The position numbers and the translations under genes are program-made. Positions 2,434-20,641 of a stretch of DNA of 64,000 nucleotides are shown one piece after another. Positions within the stretch are counted from its first letter, which is position 1; every line of letters begins with the position of its first letter. Source of the stretch: Modestobacter sp. DSM 44400 (GTDB lineage Bacteria > Actinomycetota > Actinomycetes > Mycobacteriales > Geodermatophilaceae); contig NZ_FNOZ01000001.1 of assembly GCF_900107175.1 (NCBI RefSeq), positions 124,001 to 188,000 on the forward strand. Reading direction: 5' to 3'. The notes below the pieces were generated by a model. It was not told the origin of the DNA. It saw only the letters and a program-made list of their open reading frames with translations, and made no database searches.

Positions 2434-2810
2434 GTGACCTTGGACCTCTCCGCCGTCGACCTGACCACCGAGGTGGTCCGCACCGAGCGGCTGGTGCTGG
2501 CCCGTTCCGGCCCGAGGACGTCGATGCGGTGTTCACTGCCTGCCAGGACCCGTTGATCCAGCGCTGGTCGAAGGACCCCCGTGCCCCCAGCTCTCGCACG
2601 CTCGCGCCGGGGCCCTGCACGGGGGCCAGGCCCTGGGGGCCGCGGCTGGGCGCGCCCCGGGTGCACCTGGTGGCGACGTCCGCAACGCCGCGTCGCAGGC
2701 GGTGGCCCGGCGCGCCCGTTTCACCCAGGAGGGGTGCTGCGTTCTTACCTCCCTACCGGGACGGCTCCCGCGGCGACGCCGCGCTCTTCTCCCGGCTGCC
2801 CGGCGACTGA
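2434..2810 (+). pseudogene. GNAT N-acetyltransferase relic, frameshifted and interrupted by a repeat
   Basis: Pieces of a RimJ-type GNAT acetyltransferase are readable in different frames. The GTG at 2434 opens with a typical RTERLVLA start. After one frame shift the next piece reads [17 protein letters not shown] up to about 2578. A GC-rich dispersed repeat then interrupts it. A C-terminal piece reads [11 protein letters not shown], then FTQEG, then LRSYLPYRDGSRGDAALF to a TGA at 2808, again needing several single-base shifts. Total length is about 125 codons against roughly 180 in intact relatives, so the middle of the fold is also lost. It follows the PPOX gene by 10 nt. The multiple indels make a sequencing error unlikely. 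Confidence 0.8.
2568..2627 (+). repeat. Dispersed ~60-bp repeat, copy 1 (inside GNAT relic)
   Basis: Reads TCGAAGGACCCC, then a C-rich spacer, then CTCGCACGCTCGC, then GGGGCCCTGCACGGG. The same ordered blocks occur at 8851-8921, 15801-15864, 18899-18957 and 20571-20630. Here the copy falls inside the reading frame of the acetyltransferase relic. Confidence 0.75.
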
Positions 2811-2825
2811 CCCCTCGGCACACGA

Positions 2826-2860
2826 CGGCGGGCCGCCTCCCCGAGGGAGACGGCCCGCCG
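2826..2860 (-). terminator. Hairpin terminator downstream of hpf
   Basis: A 10-bp perfect stem, CGGCGGGCCG (2826-2835) with its complement at 2851-2860, encloses a short loop that can itself pair. It sits 12 nt beyond the hpf stop codon and just after the acetyltransferase relic, so it could stop transcription from both sides. There is no clear U tract. Confidence 0.5.
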
Positions 2861-2872
2861 CACGGTGCCCGG

Positions 2873-3556
2873 TCAGACGGTCGCCGGTTCCCGTTCCACG
2901 CTGTCGGTGGCCTCGCCGGCGTGCCCGAGGGCCAGCGGTGCACCCAGCCTGATGAGGCCGTAGTCGTAGGCGTGCCGCCGGTAGACCACCGACGGCTGGC
3001 CGGTGTCGGCGCAGGCGAAGAGGAAGAAGTCGTGCCCCACGAGTTCCATCTCGTGCAGCGCCTGGTCGACGGTCATCGGGGTGGCCGGGTGCACTTTCTC
3101 CCGGACGACCTGCCCGGGCAGGTGCTCGTCGAGGTCGGTCACGTGCGGACCGGCCGCGAGCTCCTTGTCCAGCGCCATCGCGGCCAGCGCGGTGCCGTCG
3201 GCCTCCACGGGCATTCCATCCAGCCGGACGCTGGCCGGCGTGCGCCGGCCGTGGTGGATCCGCCGGCGGTCGTTGGCCCGCCTCAGACGGTTCTCCAGCT
3301 TGTGGGCGGCGAGCTCCAGGGCGGCGTAGAAGTCCGGGGCGCAGGCCTCGGCGCGGGCCACCGGCCCCTTGCCGCGCAGCGTGATCTCCACACGCTGACA
3401 GTTGGCGGACTGGCGGGGGTTCTTCTCGTGCAGCAGTTCGACGTCGATGCGAATCAACTTGCCGTCGAAGCGTTCGAGCTGGCCGACCTTGTCTTCGACG
3501 TGCTGCCGAAAGTGCTCGGGCACCTCGACGTTGCGACCACGGACCACGATCTCCAT
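2873..3556 (-). CDS. hpf: Long-form ribosome hibernation promoting factor
   Basis: A 227-residue protein that binds the 30S decoding channel and, through its C-terminal domain, dimerises 70S ribosomes into inactive 100S particles. The N-terminal ribosome-binding domain (about 1-100: MEIVVRGRNVEVPEHF at the start, then VEITLRGKG) is followed by a linker rich in Arg and the C-terminal dimerisation domain, with the typical MTVDQALHEMELVGHDFFLF and YDYGLIRL segments. This is the usual long-HPF size in actinobacteria. The ATG at 3556 is chosen because it begins the conserved domain and has a strong GGGAGG site 5 nt upstream. It lies between comF and secA, as in many actinobacteria. Confidence 0.95.
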   Translation of the reverse strand: MEIVVRGRNVEVPEHFRQHVEDKVGQLERFDGKLIRIDVELLHEKNPRQSANCQRVEITLRGKGPVARAEACAPDFYAALELAAHKLENRLRRANDRRRIHHGRRTPASVRLDGMPVEADGTALAAMALDKELAAGPHVTDLDEHLPGQVVREKVHPATPMTVDQALHEMELVGHDFFLFACADTGQPSVVYRRHAYDYGLIRLGAPLALGHAGEATDSVEREPATV

Positions 3557-3591
3557 CAGACCTCCCGGTCGAGCGGGCTGTGATCGGACCG

Positions 3592-3597
3592 ACGCTA
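3592..3597 (-). promoter_or_regulatory. Candidate -10 box for hpf
   Basis: TAGCGT on the minus strand, 35 nt before the hpf ATG. It would give a leader of about 29 nt that carries the GGGAGG ribosome site. No convincing -35 was seen, so confidence is low. Confidence 0.25.
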
Positions 3598-3647
3598 GCC
3601 GTCCCCGCCGCACCACGACAGTCGAGACGCGCGCCTTGGTCCTCCCG

Positions 3648-4442
3648 TCAGGTGCGCACCGTGAAGGTCCCAGGTGAGCGCGCCGCAACCCGGTGCCCGG
3701 ACCGTCGAGGGGTCGCCGCGACCACCGCCGCGAGCACGGGCTCGTTCCCGGAGGAGAGTCCGGCGGCCAGCGCCCGGGCCGCCTCGGTCAGCGTCGCGCC
3801 GCTGCTCACCACGTCGTCCACGAGCACCAGGACGGCACCGACCGGCGGCCCGTCCCGGGGCGCCCGGACCGCGAAGCGCCCGGCCAGGTTCGCCCGCCGG
3901 GCGGCGGCGTCCAGGCCGGCGGAGTCGCGGGTGCCCCGCGGACGGCGCAGCAGGGCCGCCGGGCGGGCGGCCAACCCGGCGGCGCGCAGCTCGGTGGCCG
4001 CCGCGCGGGCCAGTTCCCCGACGTGGTCGCGGCCACGCCGCTGCACCGCCGCGGTGGAGCTGGGCACCGGCACCAGCAGCACCGGCCTCCCCCGCCCCGC
4101 GCCGGGCAGCCCGGCCAGCACGCCCGTGACGGCCAGGGCCAGCGCCCGGCCCAGCGGTGTGGCCAGCTCGGCGCGGCCGTGCTCCTTGAACGCCAGCACT
4201 GCCGGGCGGACCGGTCCGGAGTACGCCCCGGCGGCGACCGTCGGCGGGAAGCCGTCGGGGTGCCGGCGGGGTTCGGCCAGCCGTGGCTCCGCAAGCCGGC
4301 CGCGGCAGTCCGGGCACAGCACGTCCCCGGGGACGGCGCAGCCGGCGCACGTGCGCGGCAGGACCAGGTCGGCCAGCGCAGTCCAGCCCGCGACGAGGGC
4401 ACCCGCAGCCGGTCGTCCGACCCGCCCGCCCCCTGCCGCCAC
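3648..4442 (-). CDS. comF: ComF family phosphoribosyltransferase-like protein
   Basis: 264-residue double zinc ribbon and phosphoribosyltransferase-fold protein, related to ComF, which in naturally competent bacteria acts in the handling of imported single-stranded DNA. The N-terminal zinc-ribbon cysteines are visible as CAGC and CPDC (about residues 32-50). The C-terminal PRPP-binding loop reads VLVDDVVSSGATL near residue 215. Its start is GTG at 4442, about 95 nt downstream of lpqB's stop in the same direction. The lpqB-comF-hpf-secA order is conserved in actinobacteria, but its role there is not settled. Confidence 0.9.
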   Translation of the reverse strand: MAAGGGRVGRPAAGALVAGWTALADLVLPRTCAGCAVPGDVLCPDCRGRLAEPRLAEPRRHPDGFPPTVAAGAYSGPVRPAVLAFKEHGRAELATPLGRALALAVTGVLAGLPGAGRGRPVLLVPVPSSTAAVQRRGRDHVGELARAAATELRAAGLAARPAALLRRPRGTRDSAGLDAAARRANLAGRFAVRAPRDGPPVGAVLVLVDDVVSSGATLTEAARALAAGLSSGNEPVLAAVVAATPRRSGHRVAARSPGTFTVRT

Positions 4443-4538
4443 CCGGACAGCCTGCGCGCGGCGCGGGTCCCGGGTGCGCGGTCCGCTCCCGTTCGGGGAC
4501 GACGGCCGCGGCTGGGGACGGCGGCCGGCGAGCTCGGG

Positions 4539-6281
4539 TCAGAGGGGGTAGAACGGCGCCGTCCCGGCGACCGGCTGCTCTCCGCGCAGCAGGGTGACCC
4601 AGTTCCCACCCGACAGCATCCACAGCGTGCCGTCGGCGGTGACCAACGGCTGCCGGCTCGGTGTGGCCGCCAGCGCGGTCGGCTGACCCGGCAGACCGGC
4701 CATCGTCACCGTCGTCAGGTCCCAGCCGTCCACCCTCACCGTGTACGGCTCCGTGCGCTGGGCGCTGGGGTCGCCGGCCAGCAGCATCAGCAGACCGGAG
4801 TTCCGCCAGCCGACGTCGACGACCTGGCGCACCGAGGGCGCGACCGAGCGCAGGTCGCGCACGCTGACCGTGTCGTCGGCGCGGACCACCGTGCCCACGT
4901 AGAGCTGGCCGCCCTGCGGGGTCTCCACGACCACTGCCGCCCGGACACCGTCCGGGGACAGCTGGAGGGTCGAGGTGCGTCCCAACCCGGCCAGCGTGGC
5001 GGCGTTCACCGGCTGCGGGGTCCCGCTGGCCGGCACCCGCACCACGTCGGTGCCGTTGCGCACCGTCCAGACCTCCGATCGGGTGCCCGCCGTCGTCGGT
5101 GCGGTGAAGCTGCCGCCGGTCAGCACCGGCGCCAGCTCGCCGCCGTAGGGCCCGGCGAGCAGGCTCGCGGTCGGTCCCGCCACCGACACCCCCGCCGTCA
5201 GCCCCAGGGCACCGGTCCGCCGGTCCGCGGAGATCGCGGCCGAGGACAGCCCGTACGCGCCTGTCCCGGCCGGACCGGGCGCGGGCGCCCCGTCGGTGGC
5301 CCGGTGCAGGGCGCCGTCGACCAGGTAGTGCCCCACTGCGTCGGCCGGGGCCGCGTCGGGGTCCAGCGCAGCCCAGTCGTCGACGCTCTGGATGGCGGGC
5401 ACACCGGGCAGTCCCAGTGGCTGCCCGTCACGGAGCACCTCGACCGAGCGTAGGTCCAGCGCGTCCAGCGACCACACCACCTGGGCCGACAGCCCGGACA
5501 GCGCCGCGTCGGTGGTTCCCTCCGGGAAGGTCAGGTCGACCCGCGCCGTGGTCCCGGCGACGCTCACCGTGCTGCGGAGCTGCACTTTGGCCAGCGCGTT
5601 GACCACGCCGGCGGCGATCGCGGTCGAGGGTCCGGCGATCAGCCGCTCGACCAGCGCGTTCGGCTGCGCTTCTCCGGAGACCAGATAGCGCGGGTCGGGC
5701 ACCACCCGGGTCCTGGTGGGGTCGAGGAAGTAGGCGTTGACCGCGTCGTAGGTGCGGACGAAGTCCGGCTGCAGCATGAGCAGGCCGTCCTGTGGGTCGA
5801 TCACCTGCCATTCGCCGGAGTCGTCGCTGAGGGTGAAGGCGCGGGTGAACAGCGCGCCGTCGCCGACGGTGAACACGCCCCGCTCGTCGACCGTGCCGAC
5901 CAGCGGCGCGCTCAGCTCCACGGTGCCGTGCGCCGTCTGGCGGGTGGAGTACGACGCGCCGATGACGGTCACCCCGCCGCTGTCCGACCACGACGTCGCG
6001 GCATCCGCGGCGAGGAACTGGCGGGCGACCGGGTGGTTGCGCGCAGTGCTGGCGCTGGCGTCGATGAACCCGCGCACCACCTCCTCGGGGGTGGCGCCCG
6101 CCTCCGGCGGGATCGGCTCGATGCCGACCGGCGCGTCCGGCGGGTCGGCGAGCTGGGTGATCTGCACCGTCGGCGAGTTCTCCGGCACGGTGCTGCAGCC
6201 GGCGAGCACCGCGGTCGCGAGCAGGACGGCGAGCAGGACGGCGACCACGGCCCGCACGGGGCGTCGCCCTCCCGGCCTCAC
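4539..6281 (-). CDS. lpqB: Lipoprotein LpqB, accessory to the MtrAB two-component system
   Basis: 580-residue secreted lipoprotein. The signal peptide ends in a lipobox LAGC with the lipidated Cys at residue 29. A GerMN-type domain follows (about residues 200-340) and a C-terminal beta-propeller-like region fills the rest. In mycobacteria LpqB binds the extracytoplasmic part of MtrB and modulates MtrA signalling and cell-wall properties. The GTG at 6281 overlaps the mtrB stop by 4 nt (GTGA), which argues for translational coupling and fixes this start; an in-frame extension upstream only shadows mtrB. Confidence 0.95.
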   Translation of the reverse strand: MRPGGRRPVRAVVAVLLAVLLATAVLAGCSTVPENSPTVQITQLADPPDAPVGIEPIPPEAGATPEEVVRGFIDASASTARNHPVARQFLAADAATSWSDSGGVTVIGASYSTRQTAHGTVELSAPLVGTVDERGVFTVGDGALFTRAFTLSDDSGEWQVIDPQDGLLMLQPDFVRTYDAVNAYFLDPTRTRVVPDPRYLVSGEAQPNALVERLIAGPSTAIAAGVVNALAKVQLRSTVSVAGTTARVDLTFPEGTTDAALSGLSAQVVWSLDALDLRSVEVLRDGQPLGLPGVPAIQSVDDWAALDPDAAPADAVGHYLVDGALHRATDGAPAPGPAGTGAYGLSSAAISADRRTGALGLTAGVSVAGPTASLLAGPYGGELAPVLTGGSFTAPTTAGTRSEVWTVRNGTDVVRVPASGTPQPVNAATLAGLGRTSTLQLSPDGVRAAVVVETPQGGQLYVGTVVRADDTVSVRDLRSVAPSVRQVVDVGWRNSGLLMLLAGDPSAQRTEPYTVRVDGWDLTTVTMAGLPGQPTALAATPSRQPLVTADGTLWMLSGGNWVTLLRGEQPVAGTAPFYPL

Positions 6282-8029
6282 GAGTCCTCCGTCCGTCGCG
6301 CGGGAGACGACGGTCGAGGACCGGCCTGCCGCGTCGCCGCCGCGCGCAGCGCCGTGGGCCGCAACGGCAGCGGCGAGCCGGTCAGCTCCCCTCCTGCGGT
6401 CAGCGGCACGGTGAGCCGGAACTGGGCGCCCTGCCCGGGTAGCCCCCAGACCTGCAGCCACCCGCCGTGCAACCGCGCGTCCTCCAGGCTGATCGACAGG
6501 CCCAGCCCGCTGCCGCCCACCGTGCGCACCCGGGCGGGGTCGGCGCGCCAGAAACGGTCGAAGACGTGCTGGGCATCCGCCGAGCTCAGTCCGACCCCGT
6601 GGTCGCGCACCGTCATCGCCGCGGCGGTGCGCGAGGCGGCCAGGGTGATCTCCACCGGGTCCCCCGCCCCGTGTTCGATGGCGTTGCCGACCAGGTTGCG
6701 CAGCACCCGTTCCACCCGCCGGGCGTCGACCTCGGCGATCACCGGCTCGGCCGGCTGGGTCACCCGCAGCTCGCACCCCCGGCGGGCGGCCAGCGCCGAC
6801 ATCCCGGCCACTACCCGGTCGACGACCTGGGGGAGGTCCTGCGGCTCGGCCTCCAGCACCGCCGCCCCGGCGTCGTAGCGGCTGATCTCCAGCAGGTCCG
6901 ACAGCAGGACCTCGAAGCGTTCGAGCTCGTTGTGCAGCAGCTCTGCGGAGCGGGCCACCGCCGGGTCGAAGTCGGCCCGCGCGTCGTGCAGCACGTCGGC
7001 GGCCATCTGCACGGTGGTCAGCGGGGTGCGCAGCTCGTGGCTGACGTCGGAGGTGAAGCGCTGCTGCAGCTGGGAGAGCCCCTCCAGCTGGGTGATCTGC
7101 GTCTGCAGGCTGTCGGCCATCGCGTTGAAGCTGGTGGCCAGCCGGGCCAGGTCGTCCTCCCCGCGGACGGCGAGCCGTTCCTCCAGCCGGCCCTCGGCCA
7201 GCCGCTGGGCCGTGCTCGCCGCCCGTCGGACCGGGTAGACCACCAGCCGGGTCACCAGCACGCCGATGCCCACGACGAAAAGCACCAGGACGACGCCCAT
7301 GATCGCCACGGTGCTGCGGATGAGGACCAGGCTCTCCTGTTCCTGTTCCAGTGGAAAGGCGAAGTAGACCTCCACCCGGTCACCGCTCTGCCCGTCGGCG
7401 GGCACCGGCGCCCCGACCAGCAGCGTGGGCACGAGGCGGACGGCGGCGTCCGGAACGGGCGCGTACTGGTAGGCCTGCGAGCCACTGGCCACCTGGACCC
7501 GCAGCTCGCTCGGCAGGTCGCGGAAGGTGAGCGTCGTCCGGCTGGCGGCCACCCGCTCCTGGTCACCGGAGCGGTAGACCATCACCACGTCGAAGTCACC
7601 GGCCGCCCCGCCGCGGGAGCGCAGGCCCTGGACGGTGCGGGCCAGCGTGGACCGGACGCTGGCCGAGTCGCCGGTGGCGATGCCGCTGACCTCGGACCGG
7701 GCGTACTGCACCCCGGCGAGCGACTGGTCGACCGCGGCCTGGCGCTTGACGCGGAGCAGCTGGTCGCTGATCTGCCGGAACAGCACCAGGCTGACGATCA
7801 CCACCACGACCGCCGCCACGACCATGGTGATCGCACCGATCCGCAGCTGCAGCGACGAGCGCCAGGTGTGCACGGCGCGGCGCACGCCCCGGCGGGTGAG
7901 CCGGCGGCCCCGGGCGACCCGCACCAGCGCGGCGCGCCGGACGCGCCGCGCTCCCGAGGCGCGCGGGCGGGCGGCGTCCGACCGGTCGCCGTCCGCGCCG
8001 ACTGTCCCCGGACGCGCGGTCGCGCTCAC
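6278..8029 (-). CDS. mtrB: Sensor histidine kinase MtrB
   Basis: About 583-residue membrane histidine kinase, partner of MtrA; it senses envelope state and controls cell division and wall hydrolase genes in actinobacteria. A basic cytoplasmic N-terminus precedes a first membrane segment (GAITMVVAAVVVVIVSLVLF). An extracytoplasmic domain, a second membrane segment, HAMP, HisKA with the phospho-accepting His in FTSDVSHELRTPLT, and a HATPase domain (VGNAIEHG, GGSGLGLS) follow. The GTG at 8029 is chosen: it begins 7 nt after the mtrA stop. A further in-frame start at 8065 would overlap mtrA by 29 nt. It ends in GTGA overlap with lpqB. Confidence 0.96.
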   Translation of the reverse strand: MSATARPGTVGADGDRSDAARPRASGARRVRRAALVRVARGRRLTRRGVRRAVHTWRSSLQLRIGAITMVVAAVVVVIVSLVLFRQISDQLLRVKRQAAVDQSLAGVQYARSEVSGIATGDSASVRSTLARTVQGLRSRGGAAGDFDVVMVYRSGDQERVAASRTTLTFRDLPSELRVQVASGSQAYQYAPVPDAAVRLVPTLLVGAPVPADGQSGDRVEVYFAFPLEQEQESLVLIRSTVAIMGVVLVLFVVGIGVLVTRLVVYPVRRAASTAQRLAEGRLEERLAVRGEDDLARLATSFNAMADSLQTQITQLEGLSQLQQRFTSDVSHELRTPLTTVQMAADVLHDARADFDPAVARSAELLHNELERFEVLLSDLLEISRYDAGAAVLEAEPQDLPQVVDRVVAGMSALAARRGCELRVTQPAEPVIAEVDARRVERVLRNLVGNAIEHGAGDPVEITLAASRTAAAMTVRDHGVGLSSADAQHVFDRFWRADPARVRTVGGSGLGLSISLEDARLHGGWLQVWGLPGQGAQFRLTVPLTAGGELTGSPLPLRPTALRAAATRQAGPRPSSPARRTEDS

Positions 8030-8036
8030 GGACGAG

Positions 8037-8744
8037 TCACGGCGGGCCGGCCTTGTACCCGACACCGCGCACCGTGAGCACCACCTCCGGCTTCTCGGGG
8101 TCGCGCTCGACCTTGGCCCGCAGCCGTTGCACGTGCACGTTCACCAGCCGGGTGTCGGCCGCGTGGCGGTAGCCCCAGACCTGCTCGAGCAGCAGCTCCC
8201 GGGTGAACACCTGCCGCGGCTTGCGGGCCAGCGCGACCAGCAGGTCGAACTCCAGCGGCGTCAGCGGGATCGCCGCGCCGTCGCGGGTCACCGCGTGGGC
8301 CGGCACGTCGATCTGCACGTCGCCGATGGTGAGGTTCTCGGCCTGGCCGTTGTCGCCGCGGCGCAGCTGGGCGCGGACCCGGGCCACCAGCTCCACGGGC
8401 TTGAACGGCTTGGTCACGTAGTCGTCGGCGCCGGCCTCCAGCCCCTGAACGACGTCGATCGTGTCGCCCTTGGCGGTGAGCATCACGATCGGCACGGTCG
8501 ACTGGGTGCGGATGTCGGCACAGATCTGCAGGCCGTTGCGGCCGGGCAGCATCAGGTCCAGCAGCACCAGGTCGGGGCGCAGCTGCTGGAAGGTGGCGAC
8601 CGCCCGGGCGCCGTCGGAGACGAAGGCCGGTTCGTACCCCTCCCGGCGCAGCACGATGCCCAGCATCTCGGCGAGGGCGGCGTCGTCATCGACGACGAGG
8701 ACACGGCCGCGGCTGGTCCCCGCGGGGGGAGCGGAAGGTGACAC
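8037..8744 (-). CDS. mtrA: Response regulator MtrA
   Basis: 235-residue OmpR/PhoB-type response regulator. The receiver domain has acidic residues VVDDD near 18-22, the phospho-acceptor Asp in LLDLMLPG (residue 63), and Lys in VTKPFKP. The winged-helix DNA-binding domain ends in a recognition helix with TRLVNVHVQRLRAKVE. It regulates cell-wall hydrolase, replication and division genes in relatives, and LGFP/amidase genes such as those later in this window are plausible targets (inference). The GTG at 8744 is preferred over an earlier in-frame start because the domain starts directly after it and a -10-like CAGAAT lies 6 nt upstream. Confidence 0.97.
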   Translation of the reverse strand: MSPSAPPAGTSRGRVLVVDDDAALAEMLGIVLRREGYEPAFVSDGARAVATFQQLRPDLVLLDLMLPGRNGLQICADIRTQSTVPIVMLTAKGDTIDVVQGLEAGADDYVTKPFKPVELVARVRAQLRRGDNGQAENLTIGDVQIDVPAHAVTRDGAAIPLTPLEFDLLVALARKPRQVFTRELLLEQVWGYRHAADTRLVNVHVQRLRAKVERDPEKPEVVLTVRGVGYKAGPP

Positions 8745-8750
8745 GGGTCC

Positions 8751-8756
8751 ATTCTG
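8751..8756 (-). promoter_or_regulatory. Candidate leaderless -10 box for mtrA
   Basis: CAGAAT on the minus strand ends 6 nt before the mtrA GTG, so transcription would begin at or next to the start codon. No ribosome site is visible, which fits a leaderless message. The match to TAnnnT is imperfect at the first base. Confidence 0.3.
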
Positions 8757-8850
8757 CCGCGCCGAGGGCCCGAAGACGGCCCCACCCGCCCGGGAGGACA
8801 CCCGGGCGGGTGGTGGACGAGCTGTTCAGCGGCCGGTCACGGGGCTGTCC

Positions 8851-8918
8851 GACCCCGTGCGGGGCCACCTGCAGGGTCCCGCCGCGAGCTTGCGAACGGT
8901 GGGGGCAGGGGGTCCTTT

Positions 8919-8921
<3 letters not shown>
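8851..8921 (-). repeat. Dispersed ~60-bp repeat, copy 2 (starts at ahcY stop codon)
   Basis: On the minus strand it begins with the ahcY stop codon, TGAAAAGGACCC, and continues with CCCCCACCGTTCGCAAGCTCGC, broken here as CCCCCACCG and TTCGCAAGCTCGC. It then reads GGCGGGACCCTGCAGG and ends in a GGCCCCG/CGGGGTC inverted repeat. It fills most of the gap between ahcY and mtrA. Confidence 0.8.
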
Positions 8922-10403
<1,482 letters not shown>

Positions 10404-10540
10404 GTCGCTCCAGTGTCCGGCCCGGCGGCGTCCCGGGATCGGGACGGGCGGGCGTACGTGCGGTCGCTGTGCGAGCATGCCGAGGCTTCGGCGGGGCTCG
10501 TGCCGGGATCAAGGGTACGTGCTCGGGCGGCGGACAGACG

Positions 10541-10696
10541 TCAGCGGATGAGGTGGACCTCGATGGGGAGGTCGAGCCCGGACCAGGCTCGGTCCGCGGT
10601 GAGCACCTCGGGGGGACGGCTGCGCAAAGTCAGCGCCAGGCAGAACCGGTCCCCGAGCGAGAGCGCACGTCCGCCCTGCAGCGACCTCGTCGCGCC
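10541..10696 (-). pseudogene. C-terminal fragment of a PIN-domain toxin (VapC-type)
   Basis: About 51 codons to a TGA at 10541 read like the end of a VapC PIN domain: a [14 protein letters not shown] segment with the acidic Asp, then [13 protein letters not shown] and a short EVHLIR tail. The N-terminal acidic residues needed for nuclease activity are missing. No antitoxin gene is beside it, and upstream bases in this frame are antisense or unrelated sequence from manA. It is best read as a decayed toxin tail left between manA and ahcY. Confidence 0.6.
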
Positions 10697-10734
10697 CGTC
10701 GGACCGAGGAATATGCCACGCCTCCGCGTGACCC

Positions 10735-11916: not shown

Positions 11917-11989
11917 CGTCCCGGAGGTTACTGGTGTCGCGGTCACTCCCGACAGGTCGGCAGGATGCGCGCCACACCACAGCGGCCTC

Positions 11990-13027: not shown

Positions 13028-13037
13028 GACCTGCCCA

Positions 13038-14183: not shown

Positions 14184-14386
14184 GCCGGCCGCTGCCGGGC
14201 CTCGTCGAGCAGCAGAACCGGGATGCCGTCACGCACGGGGAACGCCCGGTGGCAGGTGCCGCAGACCAGCTCGGCGGCCGCCACGTCGAGGGTGAGCGGG
14301 CTGTGGTGCGTGTCGGGGCAGGCCAGGATCTGCAGCAGCGCCGGGTCGATGCCCAGCGTCGCGGTGTTCGTCTCGGGACCGGTCAT
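14180..14386 (-). CDS. Trm112 family zinc-ribbon protein
   Basis: 68-residue Trm112-like protein. It has the family core LLQILACPDTHHSPL and ELVCGTCHRAFPVRDGIPVLL with one CPxxH and one CGTC cysteine pair, a zinc-ribbon layout. In eukaryotes and archaea Trm112 activates methyltransferases; the bacterial role is poorly known. It overlaps manB upstream and the SIS gene downstream, each by ATGA, so the three are almost surely translated together. Confidence 0.9.
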   Translation of the reverse strand: MTGPETNTATLGIDPALLQILACPDTHHSPLTLDVAAAELVCGTCHRAFPVRDGIPVLLLDEARQRPA

Positions 14387-15765
14387 GACCGCACCATCTC
14401 CAGTACCTCGTCGCGCACGGCCGCCATCCGCGGCTCGTCCGGTGCCTCCACGTTCAGCCGCAGCAGCGGCTCGGTGTTGCTGGCCCGCAGGTTGAACCAG
14501 GCACCGTCGGGCAGCTGCACGGTGAGCCCGTCCAGGTCGTCCAGGGTCACGCCCTCGCGGGAGCCCCAGGTCGCGCGGACCGCGGCGACCCGCCCGGGGG
14601 CGTCGGCCACCGTGGAGTTGACCTCCCCGGAGGCTGCGTACCGGCTGTACTCGGCGGTCAGCTCCGACAGCGGGCGGAACTGCTCGCCCAGCGCCGCGAG
14701 CACGTGCATCGCGGCGAGCATGCCGGTGTCGGCGCGCCAGAAGTCGCGGAAGTAGTAGTGCGCCGAGTGCTCGCCGCCGAAGACCGCGTCGGTGCGGGCC
14801 ATCTCGGCCTTGATGAACGAGTGCCCCACCCGGGTACGCACCGGCTCGCCGCCGTGCTCCCGGACGATCTCCGGCACTGCCTTGGAGGTGATCAGGTTGT
14901 GGATGATCGTGGTGCCCCGGCCCTTCGCCAGCTCTCGGACGGCGACCAGGGCGGTGATCGCCGAGGGACTGACCGCCTGCCCGCGCTCGTCGACGATGAA
15001 ACAACGGTCCGCGTCGCCGTCGAAGGCCAGTCCGATGTCGGCGCCGTGCTCGACCACCGCGGCCTGCAGGTCGACCAGGTTGGCCGGGTCGAGCGGGTTG
15101 GCCTCGTGGTTGGGGAAGGTGCCGTCGAGCTCGAAGTACATCGGGACGACGTCCAGCGGAAGACCGGACAGCACCACGGGCACGGTGAACCCGCCCATGC
15201 CGTTGCCGGCGTCGACGACGACCTTCAGCGGGCGGATGCCGGACAGGTCGACCAGCTGGCGGAGGTAGCCGGCGTACTCGGCGGCGAGGTCGCGGCTGCT
15301 GACCGAGCCGAGCCGCTCGGGCCTGCGGTCGAAGACGCCGTCCCGGCCGTCGACCAGCCGCTGGGCGCACTCCCGGATCTGCACCAGCCCCGAGTCCCGG
15401 CCGATGGGCGCCGCGCCGGCCCGGCAGAGCTTGATGCCGTTGTACTGCGCCGGATTGTGGCTGGCGGTGAACATCGCACCGGGCAGCTGCAGCGACCCGG
15501 CCGCGAAGTAGAGCATGTCGGTGGAGCCCAGTCCGGCCTCGACGACGTCCAGCCCGCGGCCCAGCACGCCCTCGGCGAAAGCCCGGGAGAGCGGAACCGA
15601 GCTCTCCCGCATGTCGTGCGCGGTGACGACGGCGGGAGCTCCGGTCTCGGCGTGCACGAACTCGGCGAACGCGGCACCGATGGCCCGCGCGACGTCGACG
15701 TCCCACTGGTCGGGCACCACCCCGCGCACGTCGTAGGCCTTGATGATCGACGACAGGTCTGACAC
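14383..15765 (-). CDS. manB: Phosphomannomutase/phosphoglucomutase
   Basis: 460-residue alpha-D-phosphohexomutase that interconverts mannose-6-phosphate and mannose-1-phosphate (and often the glucose forms). The active-site phosphoserine loop is FTASHNPAQYNGIK, the Mg-binding loop is DGDADRCF, the sugar-binding GEHSAHYYFRD is present and the phosphate-binding RASNTEPLLRLN ends the fold. Its start is GTG at 15765 with TAGGGT 7 nt upstream. Together with manA and manC it completes the route to GDP-mannose within this window. Confidence 0.96.
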   Translation of the reverse strand: MSDLSSIIKAYDVRGVVPDQWDVDVARAIGAAFAEFVHAETGAPAVVTAHDMRESSVPLSRAFAEGVLGRGLDVVEAGLGSTDMLYFAAGSLQLPGAMFTASHNPAQYNGIKLCRAGAAPIGRDSGLVQIRECAQRLVDGRDGVFDRRPERLGSVSSRDLAAEYAGYLRQLVDLSGIRPLKVVVDAGNGMGGFTVPVVLSGLPLDVVPMYFELDGTFPNHEANPLDPANLVDLQAAVVEHGADIGLAFDGDADRCFIVDERGQAVSPSAITALVAVRELAKGRGTTIIHNLITSKAVPEIVREHGGEPVRTRVGHSFIKAEMARTDAVFGGEHSAHYYFRDFWRADTGMLAAMHVLAALGEQFRPLSELTAEYSRYAASGEVNSTVADAPGRVAAVRATWGSREGVTLDDLDGLTVQLPDGAWFNLRASNTEPLLRLNVEAPDEPRMAAVRDEVLEMVRS

Positions 15766-15772
15766 GCGGACG

Positions 15773-15778
15773 ACCCTA
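15773..15778 (-). promoter_or_regulatory. Candidate leaderless -10 box for manB
   Basis: TAGGGT on the minus strand ends 7 nt before the manB GTG. Spacing matches the other leaderless candidates in this window. Confidence 0.35.
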
Positions 15779-15800
15779 TCGGCGAGCCCGGCATCCCGCG

Positions 15801-15864
15801 TCGGCCCCGCTGCAGGGTCCCGCCGCGAGCGTGCGAGCGGTGGGGGGCAGCGGGTCCTTCTTCA
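15801..15864 (-). repeat. Dispersed ~60-bp repeat, copy 3 (starts at DUF3499 stop codon)
   Basis: Minus strand: TGAAGAAGGACCC, where TGA is the stop of the DUF3499 gene, then CCCCCCACCG, CTCGCACGCTCGC and GGCGGGACCCTGCAG. This is the cleanest copy and closely matches copy 2 over its whole length. Confidence 0.85.
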
Positions 15865-16212
15865 GGGAAGGTTGGGCAGGACCCGCAGGTGCCCGCGCCG
15901 CGTGCCGCTGCCGTCGTCGGCGGGGTTGCGCACGGGCTCGGGCCGGGCCGCCTCACGGACGGCGTCGGCCAGCGCGAGCAGGTCGTCGCCGGTCGGCCCG
16001 GCGTCGTCGGCGTCCATCTCGTGCCGCACGACCTCCCAGCCGCGCGGGACGGTCAGCCGCTCCGCGTGGAACTCGCACAGGTCGTAGCTGTGCGGCTCCG
16101 AGTAGGTCGCCAAGGGACCGACGACGGCCGTGGACTCCGCGTACACGTAGGTCAGGGTCGCCGCCGCCGGTTGCGCGCAGCCGCTGCGCGAGCAGCGACG
16201 TGACTGCCTCAC
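15862..16212 (-). CDS. DUF3499 family protein
   Basis: 116-residue actinobacterial DUF3499 protein of unknown function. It has a conserved cysteine-rich N-terminus RRCSRSGC, the ATLTYVYAESTAVVGPLATY strand and YDLCEFHAERLTVPRGW, which together look like a small zinc-binding fold. Two adjacent GTG codons at 16215 and 16212 could start it; 16212 is preferred because a GAGGA site lies 7 nt upstream. It is divergent from the metallopeptidase-family gene, its usual neighbour. Its stop codon is the start of a dispersed repeat. Confidence 0.88.
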   Translation of the reverse strand: MRQSRRCSRSGCAQPAAATLTYVYAESTAVVGPLATYSEPHSYDLCEFHAERLTVPRGWEVVRHEMDADDAGPTGDDLLALADAVREAARPEPVRNPADDGSGTRRGHLRVLPNLP

Positions 16213-16362
16213 CACCGGGTCCTCACAGATCGGCACACTAACCGCGATTCGTCCATCTGGGGCGCAGGCACACCGGAAACGCCGCGCGCGTGCCGCGGGA
16301 CACCTCCCGGCGGGGCGCGAAGGGGTCCGGGTGGGGCGGCGACCCGTACGCTCGCACCCGCG

Positions 16363-16821
16363 ATGTCCCGCTCTCCTGCCCGCGCCCGGCGCGACCGCCA
16401 CGGCCGCGGTCTGCGCGGCCGCCTCGTCCCCCCGACCGTGCCGCTGTCCCGCAGCCGCGCGGAACAATTCGACGACCTGGTGCTCGACGCCGTCGAGGAG
16501 CTGGAGCGGCGCTGGGAGCGCGAGCTGGCCGGCGTGGAGTTCGCCGTCGAGGACGTGCCCTGGGTCGACCACAGCAGCCCCGACGAGGTCGTGCTGGACG
16601 CCGACGTGCTCGACGACGCCAGCGTCCCGCTCGCCCGCGTGCTGCCCGCCCACCGTGAGGACGGCCGGGAGCACCCCGCCCGGATCGTGGTCTACCGGCG
16701 GCCCCTGGAGATCCGCGCCGCCGACCGCGACGACCTCGCCGACCTGGTCCGCGACGTCGTCGTCGACCAGGTCGCGGTGCTGCTGGGCCGCGACCCGGAG
16801 GAGATCGATCCCCCCGGCTGA
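16363..16821 (+). CDS. Metallopeptidase-family protein without HExxH
   Basis: 152-residue protein of the minimal-MMP-like or zincin-like family (PF06262 type). The body matches the family: FDDLVLDAVEELE, then VEFAVEDVP, and RIVVYRRPLEIRA. The helix that should carry the zinc motif HExxH reads VVVDQVAVLLGRDPEEIDP, so the histidine ligands and the catalytic Glu are absent. It probably is not a working protease. A basic N-terminus (RARRDRHGRGLRGR) may bind nucleic acid. The ATG at 16363 is chosen. It is divergently paired with DUF3499. Confidence 0.8.
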   Translation: MSRSPARARRDRHGRGLRGRLVPPTVPLSRSRAEQFDDLVLDAVEELERRWERELAGVEFAVEDVPWVDHSSPDEVVLDADVLDDASVPLARVLPAHREDGREHPARIVVYRRPLEIRAADRDDLADLVRDVVVDQVAVLLGRDPEEIDPPG

Positions 16822-16869
16822 TCGGGTCCTCCCCGGAACCGGCCGGGCGCCACTGCCATGCTGCCGGGG

Positions 16870-18006
16870 ATGAGCACGCACAACCTCGCCTCGGGCGCCG
16901 CCCTCGCCTCGGTGTCCACGGCCACGCTGACCGCCTGGGTGGTCCTGGCCGTCGCGGTGGGCATCGCGCTGGGCCTGCTGGGTGCCCGGCTCACCGGCCG
17001 CCGACACAGCGCCCGGCCCGCACCCACGGCGGCACTCCCTCCGGACGCGCCGGTCCCGCCAGCGGGCGGCGCACTGCGGGGGACGGTCCCGTTCGTCGAC
17101 GACCTGCCCGGGTTCCTCGAGCACCCGCCGGGCACACCTGCCCCCAGCACCTCCCGGGCCCCTTCGGCGCCGCGCACCGGGGCCACGGCGTCCACGGTGT
17201 CCGCGCCGTCGACCGGCGACGCCGGGGGCGGCCCCTCGGCGCGGTCGGCGGTGCTGGCCATGGTGGTGGCCGCGGTGGTGCTCGTCGTCCTGGCGGTCGT
17301 GGTCGCAGTGACCGCCGGCCGGGGCCCGGCCGACACCACCTCCACCGCACCCACCTCCGCCGCAGCCACCTCCGCCGTTGCCGGCGCGGCGACCGCCGGC
17401 ACCACCGCGCCGGCAACGGCACCGACCGGGTCGGCCGCCGCGGGCGTGGACCCGGCCGTCCCGACCACGGTGGCACCGGAGACGACGACCGAGACCGCCG
17501 CAGCGGCGCTGGCCTTCAGCTCCGTGCCGCTGGGCGACGACGGGGTCGCGGCCAGCGTCACCTTCGGTGGCGTGCTGCTCGAGCAGCGCGCCGTCGGGCT
17601 CACCGTCACCTATCCCAGCCTGAGCGTCAGCAGCGACGGAGCGCAGGCGCTGGCCCACGTCCGACTGCCGACGTTCAACTGCCTGACCGACGAGCCGCCC
17701 GCCGACCCGATGGCGGCCGGCTGCAGCCGCTCACTGACCGAGTACGCCGACCTCGCCAGCCCTGCCCTCCAGGTCAGCCGGGACGGCGAGAGGCTCGACG
17801 TGCTCGGCCTGTTCCCCACCTACACCCGGTTCAAGGGCTCGTCGCCGGCCTACACCGGGCGGGCCTACCAGCTCACCGCAACGATCTCCCCCGCCGGCGC
17901 GGTTCGCGGCGGGGTGGCGGCGGCCAGCGGCGTGGTGCGGATCGGCCTGGACAGCGCGCCCAGCACGCCGGTGCCCGGCGTCAACGTGCTGCAGTACGCC
18001 GGCTGA
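16870..18006 (+). CDS. Hypothetical two-span membrane protein with Ala/Thr/Pro-rich linkers
   Basis: About 378 residues, no family recognised. A first hydrophobic span (about 21-42) is followed by a Pro-rich stretch with the motif VPFVDDLPGFLEHPPG. A second strong span follows (about 125-147), then a Thr/Ala/Pro-rich linker, and a C-terminal folded region of about 160 residues with two cysteines (FNCL, AAGC). The layout suggests a short cytoplasmic part, a flexible extracytoplasmic stalk and a globular surface domain. An alternative start at 16858 adds four residues. It is convergent with the next gene, 18 nt apart. Confidence 0.75.
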   Translation: MSTHNLASGAALASVSTATLTAWVVLAVAVGIALGLLGARLTGRRHSARPAPTAALPPDAPVPPAGGALRGTVPFVDDLPGFLEHPPGTPAPSTSRAPSAPRTGATASTVSAPSTGDAGGGPSARSAVLAMVVAAVVLVVLAVVVAVTAGRGPADTTSTAPTSAAATSAVAGAATAGTTAPATAPTGSAAAGVDPAVPTTVAPETTTETAAAALAFSSVPLGDDGVAASVTFGGVLLEQRAVGLTVTYPSLSVSSDGAQALAHVRLPTFNCLTDEPPADPMAAGCSRSLTEYADLASPALQVSRDGERLDVLGLFPTYTRFKGSSPAYTGRAYQLTATISPAGAVRGGVAAASGVVRIGLDSAPSTPVPGVNVLQYAG

Positions 18007-18024
18007 GCCGATAGCGCCGCACGG

Positions 18025-18852
18025 TCAGCGGCGTCCGAGCACCCGCAGGCCGGCCGAGGCGGTCAGGGTGACCACCGGCGAGCCGAGCTCGCGGCGCAGG
18101 CCGCCCACGGCGGAGGCGCCCCACCACGGCCACCGGTCGCCGGAGACGGGGTCGAGCAGGGTCAGCAGCAGGGCCGCGGGCGCATCGTCCCCCGGGACGA
18201 CGGCCAGTTCGAGGGCGCCGACGGCGGCGTGCAGGCGGGCGCTGGCGCGCACGAACGGCCGGTCGGGCGCGGGCAGCCGGTCCAGCACGGCGGGCAGCCA
18301 GCGGTCCAGCCCGGCCGGGTCGGTCGTACGGACGACGTCGGCCACCGAGTCGAGCTCGTCGACCAGCCGGCGGCTGCGGGCATTGGCCAGCGAGGCCGAC
18401 GGCAGGGCGGCGGCCAGGTGCCGCACGGTGGGGTCGCCCAGCGGTAGGCCGCCCAGGCGCATCGTCCACGGGCCGCGGAGCCGGTCGAGAGTTTCCAGCA
18501 CACCCTCGGCGAGCCGGCGGGCGACGTCGTCGTCCCGCGCGAGGAGGCGGCTCGGCGGCCGGCCGCCGGGGACGGGCCCGACGGCGTCGCCCAGCAGGGT
18601 CACCGCGGTGGCCGGGCCCCGGCGGGAGAACGACAACAGGGCCGCCCCGTCGGGACGGCCCTGCCGGTGCTGCTCGACCACCACCGCCCGGGGGCGGCCC
18701 GAGGGGACGAGGGAGGCGGACTGCACGTTCAGCACGGCGGTCAGCCACGGCCCACGGGCGGTGACAGGCGCTGCGAGGTCGGATATGAGGGGTGCCGCGG
18801 CACGGACCTCGCGGACCACTCGGGTGCGTCCGACGGCGACCCGGGTGACCAC
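18025..18852 (-). CDS. Hypothetical protein (275 aa)
   Basis: A soluble-looking, Leu/Ala/Arg-rich protein without a recognised domain. It has no signal peptide or membrane span. Readable pieces include WTMRLGGLPLGDPTVRHLA and a C-terminal DPVSGDRWPWWGASA. The start is GTG at 18852. Codon use and GC3 look like the neighbours, so it is probably real. It lies between the convergent membrane-protein gene and the whiB gene. Confidence 0.65.
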   Translation of the reverse strand: MVTRVAVGRTRVVREVRAAAPLISDLAAPVTARGPWLTAVLNVQSASLVPSGRPRAVVVEQHRQGRPDGAALLSFSRRGPATAVTLLGDAVGPVPGGRPPSRLLARDDDVARRLAEGVLETLDRLRGPWTMRLGGLPLGDPTVRHLAAALPSASLANARSRRLVDELDSVADVVRTTDPAGLDRWLPAVLDRLPAPDRPFVRASARLHAAVGALELAVVPGDDAPAALLLTLLDPVSGDRWPWWGASAVGGLRRELGSPVVTLTASAGLRVLGRR

Positions 18853-18898
18853 GGGAGTCAGTCGACCACACCGGGAGGTTCGGCCGCCTCCAGGGCGT

Positions 18899-18957
18899 CC
18901 CCGAGCCTGCGAGGTGACCCAGGAAGGGGTCCTCTCTCCAGGAGGGGTCCTTCTTCA
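18899..18957 (-). repeat. Dispersed ~60-bp repeat, copy 4 (starts at whiB stop codon, divergent)
   Basis: Minus strand: TGAAGAAGGACCCC, where TGA is the whiB stop, a short insert with a second AGGACCCC, then CTGGGTCACCTCGCAGG and CTCGGGG. The start block appears twice, as if the end had been duplicated. The core is more diverged than in copies 2 and 3. Confidence 0.6.
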
Positions 18958-19314
18958 GCCGGCGCGGCGACGCAGGCGGCGCCGCTCACGCTCGGACAGG
19001 CCGCCCCAGATGCCGAAGCGCTCGTCGTTGCCCAGGGCGTACTCCAGGCACTCGGAGCGAACCTCGCAGCCGGTGCAGATCTTCTTCGCCTCGCGGGTCG
19101 AGCCGCCCTTCTCCGGGAAGAACGCCTCGGGATCGGTCTCGGCGCACAGCGCGCTCTCCTGCCAGCCCTGTTCGTCCAGCAGCCCCCCGGGCAGGCCGGC
19201 GTCGAAGGTCGCCCCGCCCTGCGGGCTCATGCCGAGCACGTCGGCCACGTAGGCGGACGGCGCGGAACCGGCCGCTGCGCTGTTGTACTCGCTCAACCAC
19301 GACACCTCAGCCAT
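18955..19314 (-). CDS. whiB: WhiB-family iron-sulfur transcriptional regulator (WhiB2/WhmD type)
   Basis: 119-residue WhiB-like protein. Four cysteines bind a [4Fe-4S] cluster: one in ESALCAETDP and three in KKICTGCEVRSEC. The G(V/I)WGG turn appears as FGIWGGLSERERR, followed by a basic C-terminus. The unusually high identity around DPEAFFPEKGGSTREAK and the N-terminal extension of about 45 residues match the WhiB2/WhmD group, which controls septation and sporulation in relatives. The ATG at 19314 is chosen; a GTG sits one codon earlier. A good promoter lies about 83 nt upstream. Confidence 0.93.
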   Translation of the reverse strand: MAEVSWLSEYNSAAAGSAPSAYVADVLGMSPQGGATFDAGLPGGLLDEQGWQESALCAETDPEAFFPEKGGSTREAKKICTGCEVRSECLEYALGNDERFGIWGGLSERERRRLRRRAG

Positions 19315-19627
19315 CACGATGCGTCCCCTCACGTCTCGTTCCGGCGAGCCTTCCCGGGCGGTTCCCGAGCGGCCAGCGCCTGATGACAACGTTGGAATTA
19401 CACGCGTGTCGTGAAGGCCGGGTCAAGTTGACGGGGTGTAACGCCGGACCACTCCGGTCCCACCCGTCACCCCTGGTCCCCGGGGGGTCACGATCCACCT
19501 CGACACGCCGCCGGGGCAGTCAGGTTCTGCCCAGTCCGGCGCACAGGTTTCGTCCAGATCGATCGGCCCTCGACCGGTCCCCCCGGGGTCCTGCGGTCGA
19601 CTTCTGCCCATCAGGCACCATGGACCG
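19315..19627. other. Intergenic region between divergent whiB and cofD
   Basis: 313 bases with no gene. It holds the whiB promoter at 19397-19426. Close to cofD, CACCAT ends 6 nt before the GTG and could be a weak leaderless -10. Nothing else was recognised. No riboswitch was seen. Confidence 0.5.
19397..19426 (-). promoter_or_regulatory. Sigma70-type promoter of whiB
   Basis: Minus strand TTGACC (19421-19426), an 18-nt spacer and TGTAAT (19397-19402). Transcription would begin near 19390, leaving a leader of about 75 nt before the whiB ATG. This is the best two-box promoter seen in the window. Confidence 0.6.
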
Positions 19628-20641
19628 GTGCAGATCGTCGTGCTGGCCGGAGGCGTGGGCGGCGCCCGTTTCCTGCGCGGGGTGCTCGCCGCGGCGCCCG
19701 GCGCCGACGTCACCGTGGTGGTGAACACAGGCGACGACGTGACGATGCACGGGTTGCGGATCTGCCCCGACCTGGACACCGTGATGTACACGCTGGGGAA
19801 CGGGATCGACGAGGAACGCGGCTGGGGCCGGCGCGGTGAGAGCTGGACGGTCAAGAACGAACTGGCTGCCTACGGCGCCGAGCCGACCTGGTTCGGGCTC
19901 GGCGACCGCGACCTCGCGACCCATCTCGTCCGCACCCGCATGCTGGACGCCGGCTACCCCCTCTCGGAGGTCACCGCGGCGCTGTCCACCCGCTGGCAGC
20001 CCGGCGTCCGGCTGCTGCCGATGAGCGACCAGCGGGTCGAGACCCACGTCGTCGTGGCCGACCCCGAGACCGGGCGGCCGCAGGCGATCCACTTCCAGGA
20101 GTGGTGGGTCCGGCACCGTGCGTCGCTGGAGGCCAGCGCCTTCGTCCAGGTCGGCGTGGACAGAGCCCGCCCGGCCCCCGGCGTCGTCGAGGCCCTCACC
20201 GGCGCCGACGCCGTCCTGCTCGCCCCGTCGAACCCGGTGGTCTCCATCGGCACCGTGCTCGGCGTCCCCGGCATCCGCGAGGCGCTGCGCGGCACGGCCG
20301 GCCGGGTCGTGGGCGTGTCCCCGATCGTCGGCGGCGAGGTGGTGCGCGGCATGGCCGACCGCTGCCTGCCGGTCGTCGGCGTCGAGGTCAGCGCCGAGGG
20401 CGTGGGTCGCCACTACGGCGCCCGCTCCGACGGCGGCCTGCTCGACGCCTGGCTGGTGCAGACCGGCGATGGTGCCTCCGTCCCCGGCGTCGACGTCCGC
20501 CCGGTGCCGCTGCTGATGAGCTCGCCGGAGACCACCGAGGCGCTGGCCCGGGCCGCGCTGGACGCCGCGGTAGAAGGACCCCGTCCTCCCCACCCTTCGC
20601 ACGCTCAGGGCGGGCCCCGGGACGGGGCCGGCGGCCGATGA
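19628..20641 (+). CDS. cofD: 2-phospho-L-lactate (phosphoenolpyruvate) transferase, F420 biosynthesis
   Basis: 337-residue CofD/FbiA. It moves the (enol)pyruvate- or lactate-phosphate moiety from its GDP-activated form onto the deazaflavin Fo to give (dehydro-)F420-0. The N-terminal [13 protein letters not shown] nucleotide-binding loop, [11 protein letters not shown], the [12 protein letters not shown] segment and [14 protein letters not shown] are typical. Start GTG at 19628. The last 21 residues (from about 317) are Pro/His/Gly/Arg-rich and are encoded by a dispersed repeat, so the tail is probably not part of the ancestral fold. The stop overlaps the cofE ATG as ATGA. Confidence 0.95.
20571..20630 (+). 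repeat. Dispersed ~60-bp repeat, copy 5 (inside the cofD 3' end)
   Basis: Plus strand: TAGAAGGACCCC, then CCCCACC, CTTCGCACGCTC, GGGCGGGCCCCGG and a closing GGCCCCG/CGGGGCC inverted repeat. The leading TAG is out of frame with cofD, so the element is translated. It ends 7 nt before the cofE start codon and so supplies that gene's leader. Confidence 0.8.

What the first reader, a model, noticed from the sequence alone, without database searches (positions are those of the whole stretch)
2568..20630. Family of about 60-bp dispersed repeats that begin at stop codons
Five copies share ordered blocks: GAAGGACCC, a C-rich spacer, CTCGCACGCTCGC, and GGGACCCTGCA with a closing GC hairpin (2568, 8851, 15801, 18899, 20571). 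In three copies the first bases are the TGA stop of the flanking gene (ahcY, DUF3499, whiB). Copies occur in both orientations and none is seen after 21 kb. This looks like a REP/MITE-like element, or a mobile terminator, with insertion or selection at the 3' ends of genes. I know no named family that matches.
Basis: seen in the sequence. Interest (0 to 1): 0.72.

Follow-up and report, generated by a model that had tools for sequence, protein, structure and literature searches.

The report
Mobile hairpin repeats at stop codons
A family of soil bacteria carries many copies of a 60-base hairpin that has moved around their genomes and mostly sits, almost to the base, right after the stop codons of genes, sometimes inside older copies of itself, and the enzyme that moves it is unknown.

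Summary
The five window copies belong to a dispersed family: 147 model matches in this genome with 150 candidates scored, 85 of 96 sampled genomes of the taxonomic family, probably Geodermatophilaceae, and 0 of 40 genomes of other families of the order. The unit, about 60 nt (GAAGGACC…GGCCG), folds into a two-tier hairpin with a bulged A; its stem shows strong compensatory change.

In 1.25 Mb of the own and two sister genomes, 61 of 79 copies begin 0-4 nt after a same-strand stop codon. At the modal distance, 42 of 43 copies follow a called TGA stop and the 43rd a small uncalled ORF, although the same DNA holds 2347 other intergenic TGA words. Two sister species share 8 called sites and have about 11 clean one-sided ones. 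In another genus 7 of 16 high-scoring copies clearly sit inside older copies.

No RAYT transposase exists in 96 genomes; reverse transcriptase and IS110 do not co-distribute. It behaves like a REP element but carries neither REP tag. How it finds stop codons is unknown; I favour targeted insertion over selection of position.

The parts
2570..2628 (+). Element copy, about 147 nt downstream of the end (2423) of a plus-strand ORF; not stop-anchored
   Evidence: CM R1 69.3 bits; ORF list
8861..8918 (-). Element copy starting directly after the ahcY TGA
   Evidence: CM R1 57.4 bits; ortholog comparison
8919..10403 (-). ahcY (S-adenosylhomocysteine hydrolase), target gene; 15 of 21 genomes compared have an element at its stop, one of them internally deleted
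   Evidence: PF05221
15802..15860 (-). Element copy in the modal register TGA-A-GAAGGACC after the DUF3499 stop
   Evidence: CM R1 76.7 bits
15862..16146 (-). DUF3499 gene, target gene
   Evidence: PF12005; gene call
18881..18935 (-). Variant copy lying inside a 5' fragment of another copy
   Evidence: CM R1 27.2 bits, E 0.005, weak; sequence
18936..18954 (-). 5' fragment of the outer copy, AGAAGGACCCCTCCTGGAG, directly after the whiB TGA
   Evidence: read from the sequence
18955..19317 (-). whiB gene, target gene
   Evidence: PF02467; gene call
20573..20630 (+). Element copy read through in the cofD frame; CofD ends at a TGA (20639-20641) overlapping the next gene's start
   Evidence: CM R1 64.5 bits; ORFs 19628-20641 and 20638-21723; CofD domain match ends at residue 280 of 337

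Best explanation
This is a non-autonomous mobile element of about 60 nt, a REP-like structured hairpin, copied around genomes of this family by an enzyme I could not identify. New copies go mainly to two kinds of place: directly after the translational stop codon of a gene, nearly always in sense orientation and most often one base after TGA; and into the apical part of copies already present. Shown by computation: the family, its fold, its dispersal, the differences between sister genomes, and the single-base register at in-frame stops. Inferred: that the register comes from how insertion is targeted (something that distinguishes the 3' end of a translated gene, and the exposed tip of a hairpin) and not only from selection after random insertion. 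Also inferred: that the folded single strand is the moving or recognised form, since the pairing, the bulged A and the apical loop are what is conserved.
For: Dispersal: 147 matches in this genome and 147 in G007, both with 150 candidates scored, some matches partial; 85 of 96 family genomes. Fold: in A3 (15 gap-free copies picked from 30 that were found by the 5' half only) 93.3% of cells pair versus 83.9% shuffled, and 22 both-side changes versus 6.9. In all 30 pattern copies 25 have at least 8 of 9 outer pairs, mean 7.9 against 6.6 with other copies' 3' arms. In A4, 292 both-side changes versus 74, but that alignment is fitted to the model. Register: 61 of 79 copies 0-4 nt after a called stop, 44 at exactly 4, at most one at any distance from 5 to 50. 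In other genera 17 of 20 top-scoring copies lie within 5 nt of a stop that ends a long open frame. The stop, not the word: of 67 copies with an intact AGG[AG]CC (12 of 79 dropped), 43 have TGA at distance 4; 42 are called stops and the 43rd ends an uncalled 54-codon frame, against 1037 TGA stops and 2347 other intergenic TGAs in the same DNA. The stop is probably not part of the unit: 12 of 15 copies without a stop triplet at 0-4 nt still begin GAAGGACC, though some of these were found by that pattern; in 16 G099 copies the three bases where TGA would stand agree in only 43-50%. Mobility: filled and empty sites between sister species; proteins end at the same codon in 21 of 24 G006/G007 pairs called one-sided, 20 of 24 for G000/G007 and 14 of 17 for G000/G006; one identical 60-mer in four places of G099, three of them clearly inside older copies and one in a degenerate one. 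Against pure selection on distance: in G099 four copies sit 22-30 nt after the outer copy's stop inside that copy, while none of the 16 lies at such a distance outside an older copy (read).
Against: No mobilising gene was found: PF01797 in 0 of 96 genomes; PF00078 in 45 of 96 and PF01548 in 63 of 96, both missing from element-rich genomes. I know of no transposition system that reads reading frames. No target-site duplication was evident in the three cleanest pairs. Nesting in element tips does not follow from a stop-codon mechanism. 18 of 79 copies are not within 4 nt of a called stop, and one (G006, about 140260) abuts a gene's stop in antisense. Strong selection for position could mimic targeting. 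The higher share of C at third codon positions in element genes (0.569 against 0.538, p 5e-6, 59 against 910 genes) counts orthologs more than once. Of the 24 G006/G007 pairs only about 11 are clean; 10 of those 11 end at the same codon, the other (G006_295) has a doubtful gene call.
Confidence: 0.6

Rival explanations
1. Random insertion followed by strong selection of position: the element inserts anywhere, but copies abutting a stop codon are the ones kept, because there the hairpin is useful at termination (ribosome release, readthrough block, 3' end stability) or harmless.
For: Compensatory change in the stem fits a structure under selection. Element genes have slightly stronger C-ending codon bias. 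Known REPs also lie close to the 3' ends of upstream genes (PMC3733652, section 15).
Against: Cliff after 4 nt with almost nothing at 5-20. One-sided sites are common between sister species. Nested copies 22-30 nt after a stop are tolerated in G099.
Confidence: 0.25
2. A mobile intrinsic terminator placed at gene ends because it ends transcription.
For: Strong GC hairpin at gene 3' ends; co-directional to convergent 38:21 against 655:255 in other genes.
Against: At ahcY another GC-rich hairpin is visible further downstream in genomes with and without the element (8 of 15 and 4 of 6 by eye). Seven of 79 copies lie 12-30 nt before the next co-directional start. No T-run in the copies read. Single-base adjacency to the stop is not needed for termination.
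Confidence: 0.07
3. A classical REP element mobilised by a RAYT/Y1 transposase.
For: Copy number, imperfect palindrome with a bulge, location at gene 3' ends.
Against: PF01797 in 0 of 96 family genomes while the same search rings in 5 of 14 control genomes. The unpaired end is GAAG or close to it, not GTAG or CGTC.
Confidence: 0.04
4. Conserved 3' UTR structures inherited vertically, not a mobile repeat.
For: At the ahcY stop 15 of 21 genomes have an element.
Against: Those elements differ in stem and loop class, other sites are filled in one sister species only, and copies occur inside other copies.
Confidence: 0.02

Closest known systems
REP elements, GTAG and CGTC superfamilies (PMC3733652: abstract, section 15 and passages seen)
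   Same: Palindromes in high copy, mostly downstream of genes, convergent copies mostly within 20 bp of both gene ends in the species shown there; GTAG REPs often supply the TAG stop; [quoted passage not shown]
   Different: No GTAG or CGTC at the unpaired end; about 60 nt and not 20-40; the stop codon is probably not part of the unit; fixed single-base register at TGA; no Y1 transposase in 96 family genomes; the word Actinobacteria does not occur in that paper's main text
MIRU, mycobacterial interspersed repetitive units (one passage of the review PMC12548453 seen; a DTGA target is recalled only)
   Same: Small, apparently mobile repeat in Actinobacteria placed relative to translation signals
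   Different: MIRUs are said to insert at start codons with an internal ORF coupled to the gene; this element is a hairpin that usually follows the stop of a gene not overlapping the next one
MITEs (general knowledge)
   Same: Non-autonomous, inverted ends
   Different: No target-site duplication evident; no parent insertion sequence known
Integron attC sites (recalled only)
   Same: Folded-strand architecture with an extrahelical base and a variable stem, found after stop codons
   Different: Target genes here are syntenic chromosomal genes, not cassettes; integrases were not searched

Membership tests
REP (GTAG or CGTC superfamily) | Unpaired GTAG or CGTC at one end of the palindrome | tested here: not met
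   The unpaired 5' end is GAAG or a near variant
REP (GTAG or CGTC superfamily) | High-copy dispersed imperfect palindrome | tested here: met
REP mobilised by RAYT | RAYT/Y1 transposase in the genome | tested here: not met
   0 of 96 family genomes including the own one
MITE | Terminal inverted repeats | tested here: met
   GGACCCC/GGGGCC arms
MITE | Target-site duplication | tested here: inconclusive
   None evident in three clean filled/empty pairs; flanks too diverged elsewhere
MITE | Parent insertion sequence with the same ends | not tested
   No systematic search; only PF01797, PF00078 and PF01548 were sought
MIRU | Insertion at a start codon with an internal ORF coupled to the next gene | tested here: not met
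   Most copies follow stops, with the next gene tens of bases away or convergent; the cofD copy at 20573 is an exception-like case
Intrinsic terminator | GC hairpin followed by a run of T | tested here: not met
   Flanks after GGCC in the copies read show no T-run
Known RNA family (Rfam 15) | Match over a family's gathering score | tested here: not met
   Window 1-22000: 4 matches with E <= 1, none over its gathering score and none overlapping an element

The most novel reading that the evidence does not exclude
A DNA element whose insertion is directed by translation termination: something in the cell marks the 3' end of a translated reading frame (ribosome release, the naked transcript or R-loop that begins there, or a cut at the stop codon) and the folded 60-nt hairpin is joined in at that base, or into the exposed tip of an older hairpin, by an enzyme outside the transposase families tested.
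Probability: 0.3. Interest if true: 0.92.

Novelty: new variant of a known kind. Interest (0 to 1): 0.7.

Why it matters
Mobile DNA is thought to read DNA, not reading frames. Here a small hairpin occupies in-frame stop codons with single-base precision while ignoring more than twice as many other TGA words between genes, and the pattern recurs in several genera. Either insertion is coupled to translation, which would be a new targeting principle, or selection at the stop codon is strong and precise enough to sort random insertions, which would point to an unexpected role for structure right after the stop. A map of fresh insertions separates the two. An inserter that leaves the upstream protein intact would also be of practical interest.

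Tried and rejected
RAYT/Y1: absent. Reverse transcriptase (PF00078): 45 of 96 genomes, missing for example from the element-rich G014 and G003. IS110 (PF01548): 63 of 96, missing for example from G014 and G020. DNA word TGA as target: rejected by the count of non-stop TGAs. TGA as part of the element: disfavoured (see evidence for the limits). Replication strand: 88 of 147 scored G007 matches are on the leading strand if the terminus lies opposite dnaA; in the 400 kb with gene of 20 anchored copies lie on the strand that holds 241 of 375 genes, so nothing beyond gene orientation. tRNA 3' ends: 0 of 21 tRNAs found have an element at the 3' end, too few to matter (compared by eye). Phages and plasmids: no match to one typed copy. 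One viral contig matched the pattern but its sequence does not look like an element. A simple bulge-A hairpin scan gave 25 hits against 21 in reversed DNA and was dropped. Single-sequence folds beat shuffles clearly in only one of five window copies. Papers: ten searches listed nothing that describes this family; I saw listings, passages of PMC3733652, PMC2817692, PMC9686282 and PMC12548453, and section 15 and the abstract of PMC3733652. The library holds only part of the literature.

Caveats on my own counts. The stem counts come from a detector that required pairing and are not used. Of the 23 one-sided sites I count, by reading the printed sequences, about 11 as clean (G006_64, 115, 252, 295, 337, 363 and G007_145, 229, 235, 296, 370); the rest are detector misses, native hairpins, remnants or sites with an element in the other orientation. 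Four of 30 CM rows (25.8 bits and below) were dropped before the 79-copy count. Genes were called by my own codon-bias finder; uncalled small genes put their stops among the 2347 'other' TGAs. The 20 copies from other genera and the 16 from G099 were top-scoring rows, not random. An earlier count said that all genomes keep the downstream ahcY hairpin; rereading one search does not bear out 'all', and the report gives the smaller count. A note calls eight copies nested; one search supports seven clearly and leaves two doubtful. One search printed no stop for L264 because of the script's 60-codon cut-off, although TGA stands 4 nt before GGACC.
Full report
What was checked. A strict pattern on the 5' half of the repeat matched 45 times in the 5.0-Mb genome (182 contigs, 99.93% complete) and 0 times when reversed. 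A covariance model (R1, 60 positions, 18 pairs), built on 15 gap-free copies, gave 147 matches at E <= 0.1 in the own genome with 150 candidates scored; some matches are partial, and the cap hides others. In 448 kb of the window's contig it gave 30 matches at E <= 1, five of them in the window. Scaling the 26 matches above 26 bits gives roughly 290 per genome (my arithmetic).

Anatomy. The unit is an outer stem of about 11 pairs with a bulged A (GG-a-CC...GG-CC), an internal loop, and an inner stem with an A/C mismatch and a conserved 10-nt loop UCGCANGCUC. A3 holds 15 copies picked for equal length from the 30 loci fetched with the 5'-half pattern: 93.3% of cells pair (83.9% after shuffling), 22 both-side changes against 6.9, and sliding the 3' arm destroys the signal. 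In all 30 loci 25 have at least 8 of 9 outer pairs. In A4 (126 distinct copies, aligned to the model and so leaning to it) 14 of 18 pairs show changes on both sides. Other loops occur on the same frame at the ahcY stop of relatives: ACACGCTCCGCGCG and ACGAGCAAGCTCGC types. A tail GYTCCAG..., typically GYTCCAGCACGTCACC, follows 21 of 103 copies. No Rfam family covers the window copies.

Where it lives. The family is probably Geodermatophilaceae: named loci with the closest AhcY are Modestobacter, Geodermatophilus and Blastococcus, one unverified 'Bacillus' record and one Geodermatophilaceae isolate, and the Modestobacter contig has the same length as G001:C2. R1 finds the element in 85 of 96 genomes of the family at E <= 1e-6. 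In a search of 97 relatives 47 had matches, all among the 57 of the same family and none among the 40 of other families of the order. The distribution is patchy: G039 and G139 have none while several congeners reach the scoring cap.

Position. I fetched syntenic regions of G006 and G007 (400 kb each) and called genes with my own finder. Of 79 copies in 1.248 Mb, 61 begin 0-4 nt after a same-strand called stop, 44 of them at exactly 4: TGA-N-(G/C/A)-AA-GGACC. Six more lie at 6-50 nt, 12 have no same-strand stop within 200 nt. Without gene calls, 86 of 101 copies have a stop triplet at 0-4, and all 61 at distance 4 are TGA. Four of the remaining own-genome copies follow a gene's stop by 5, 5, 7 and 12 nt. 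In other genera 17 of 20 top-scoring copies lie within 5 nt of a stop ending a long open frame, in seven of eight genera; L229, L241 and L243 do not.

It is the stop, not the word TGA. Of 67 copies with an intact AGG[AG]CC, 43 have TGA at distance 4; 42 of these are called stop codons, and the 43rd ends an uncalled 54-codon frame ...KKSGANHGKRPNA, which I recall as a small ribosomal protein. The same DNA holds 1037 TGA stops and 2347 other intergenic TGAs, 1082 of them in sense downstream of genes. If the word alone were the target, 42 of 43 would have a chance of about 1e-20, or 2e-12 against the sense set alone (my arithmetic).

Mobility. G006 and G007 share 323 reciprocal best hits at median 94.7% identity. 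The detector called 8 sites filled in both, 11 only in G006, 12 only in G007 and 292 in neither; about 11 of the 23 one-sided calls are clean by eye. Proteins end at the same codon in 21 of 24 one-sided pairs (10 of the 11 clean ones), 20 of 24 for G000/G007 and 14 of 17 for G000/G006; a few filled genes are 1-8 residues shorter. Clean cases (G000_227 against two empties, G007_370 against G006_361, G006_115 against G007_115) show insertion directly after the stop with the downstream sequence kept and no evident target duplication. In two convergent regions the sister species carry elements in opposite orientation, each attached to the other gene's stop (G006_21/G007_28 and G006_262/G007_264). 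In two more (G006_35/G007_40, G007_130/G006_129) the sister has an element in the other orientation that is not at a facing called stop, and the copy at G006_129 abuts that gene's stop in antisense. At shared sites the element itself may differ, for example at ahcY, G006_256 and G006_271.

Nested copies. Sixteen G099 copies (another genus; the rows listed) were read with flanks. Seven stand directly at stops (TAG in four, TGA in three). Seven clearly lie in the apical half of an older copy with a recognisable 5' end and a matching 3' arm (L245, L248, L249, L250, L254, L257, L260), and two (L246, L247) in degenerate hosts. One 60-mer is identical in L247-L250. Four of the seven hosts start at a TGA, the inner copy 22-30 nt later; in L248 the reading frame runs through the host and ends at TAG at the inner junction. 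The window's 18899 copy looks like the same nested kind. So the element reaches two kinds of target, and a copy 22-30 nt after a stop is tolerated when an older copy is there. That weakens, but does not exclude, selection on distance alone.

Function. I do not favour a terminator: at ahcY a separate GC-rich hairpin is visible further downstream in at least 8 of 15 filled and 4 of 6 empty genomes (by eye; in the others the 150 nt shown hold another hairpin or end too early), and seven of 79 copies lie 12-30 nt before the next co-directional start. Element genes have a slightly higher share of C at third codon positions (0.569 against 0.538, p 5e-6, orthologs not independent), which would fit insertion or selection linked to expression.

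Machinery. A Y1/RAYT match is found in 0 of 96 genomes. Reverse transcriptases are in 45 of 96 and IS110 in 63 of 96, both missing from element-rich genomes. Strand follows gene orientation. The enzyme remains unknown; other transposase families were not searched.

Known relatives. REP families also sit at gene 3' ends, and GTAG REPs often provide the TAG stop (PMC3733652: abstract, section 15 and passages). MIRUs are said to insert at start codons with a coupled ORF (one passage of PMC12548453). This family fails the REP tag and RAYT tests, so I call it REP-like, not a REP. Ten paper searches listed no description of it (calls named under tried and rejected). The mends made on checking did not change my odds.

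Noticed in passing
window 19628-20641: CofD runs in frame through the element at 20573 and ends at a TGA overlapping the next start codon, so this protein carries a C-terminal extension encoded by the element.
   Followed up: partly
L264 (G134:C18), about 950-1000 on the minus strand: The end of the upstream gene including its stop is duplicated (about 22 bp) directly before the element; possibly a trace of the insertion event.
   Followed up: no
L251 and L252 after position 1060 (G099): Further short hairpin-like repeats follow the element in tandem, as if elements seed local arrays.
   Followed up: no
G000:C123:32330-32530: Four matches to the model, three of them partial, in tandem within about 200 bases on the minus strand.
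   Followed up: no
L251, L252, L253, L258 (G099): In this genome four of seven directly stop-anchored copies use TAG, three of them with the junction inside the stop (T-AGAAGG), unlike the own genus where TGA at distance 4 dominates.
   Followed up: partly
G000:C77:3252-3944 and the genus members: Reverse transcriptase matches occur in 16 of 18 genus genomes of that search, many in open frames of about 476-490 residues; not linked to the element but unexplained.
   Followed up: no
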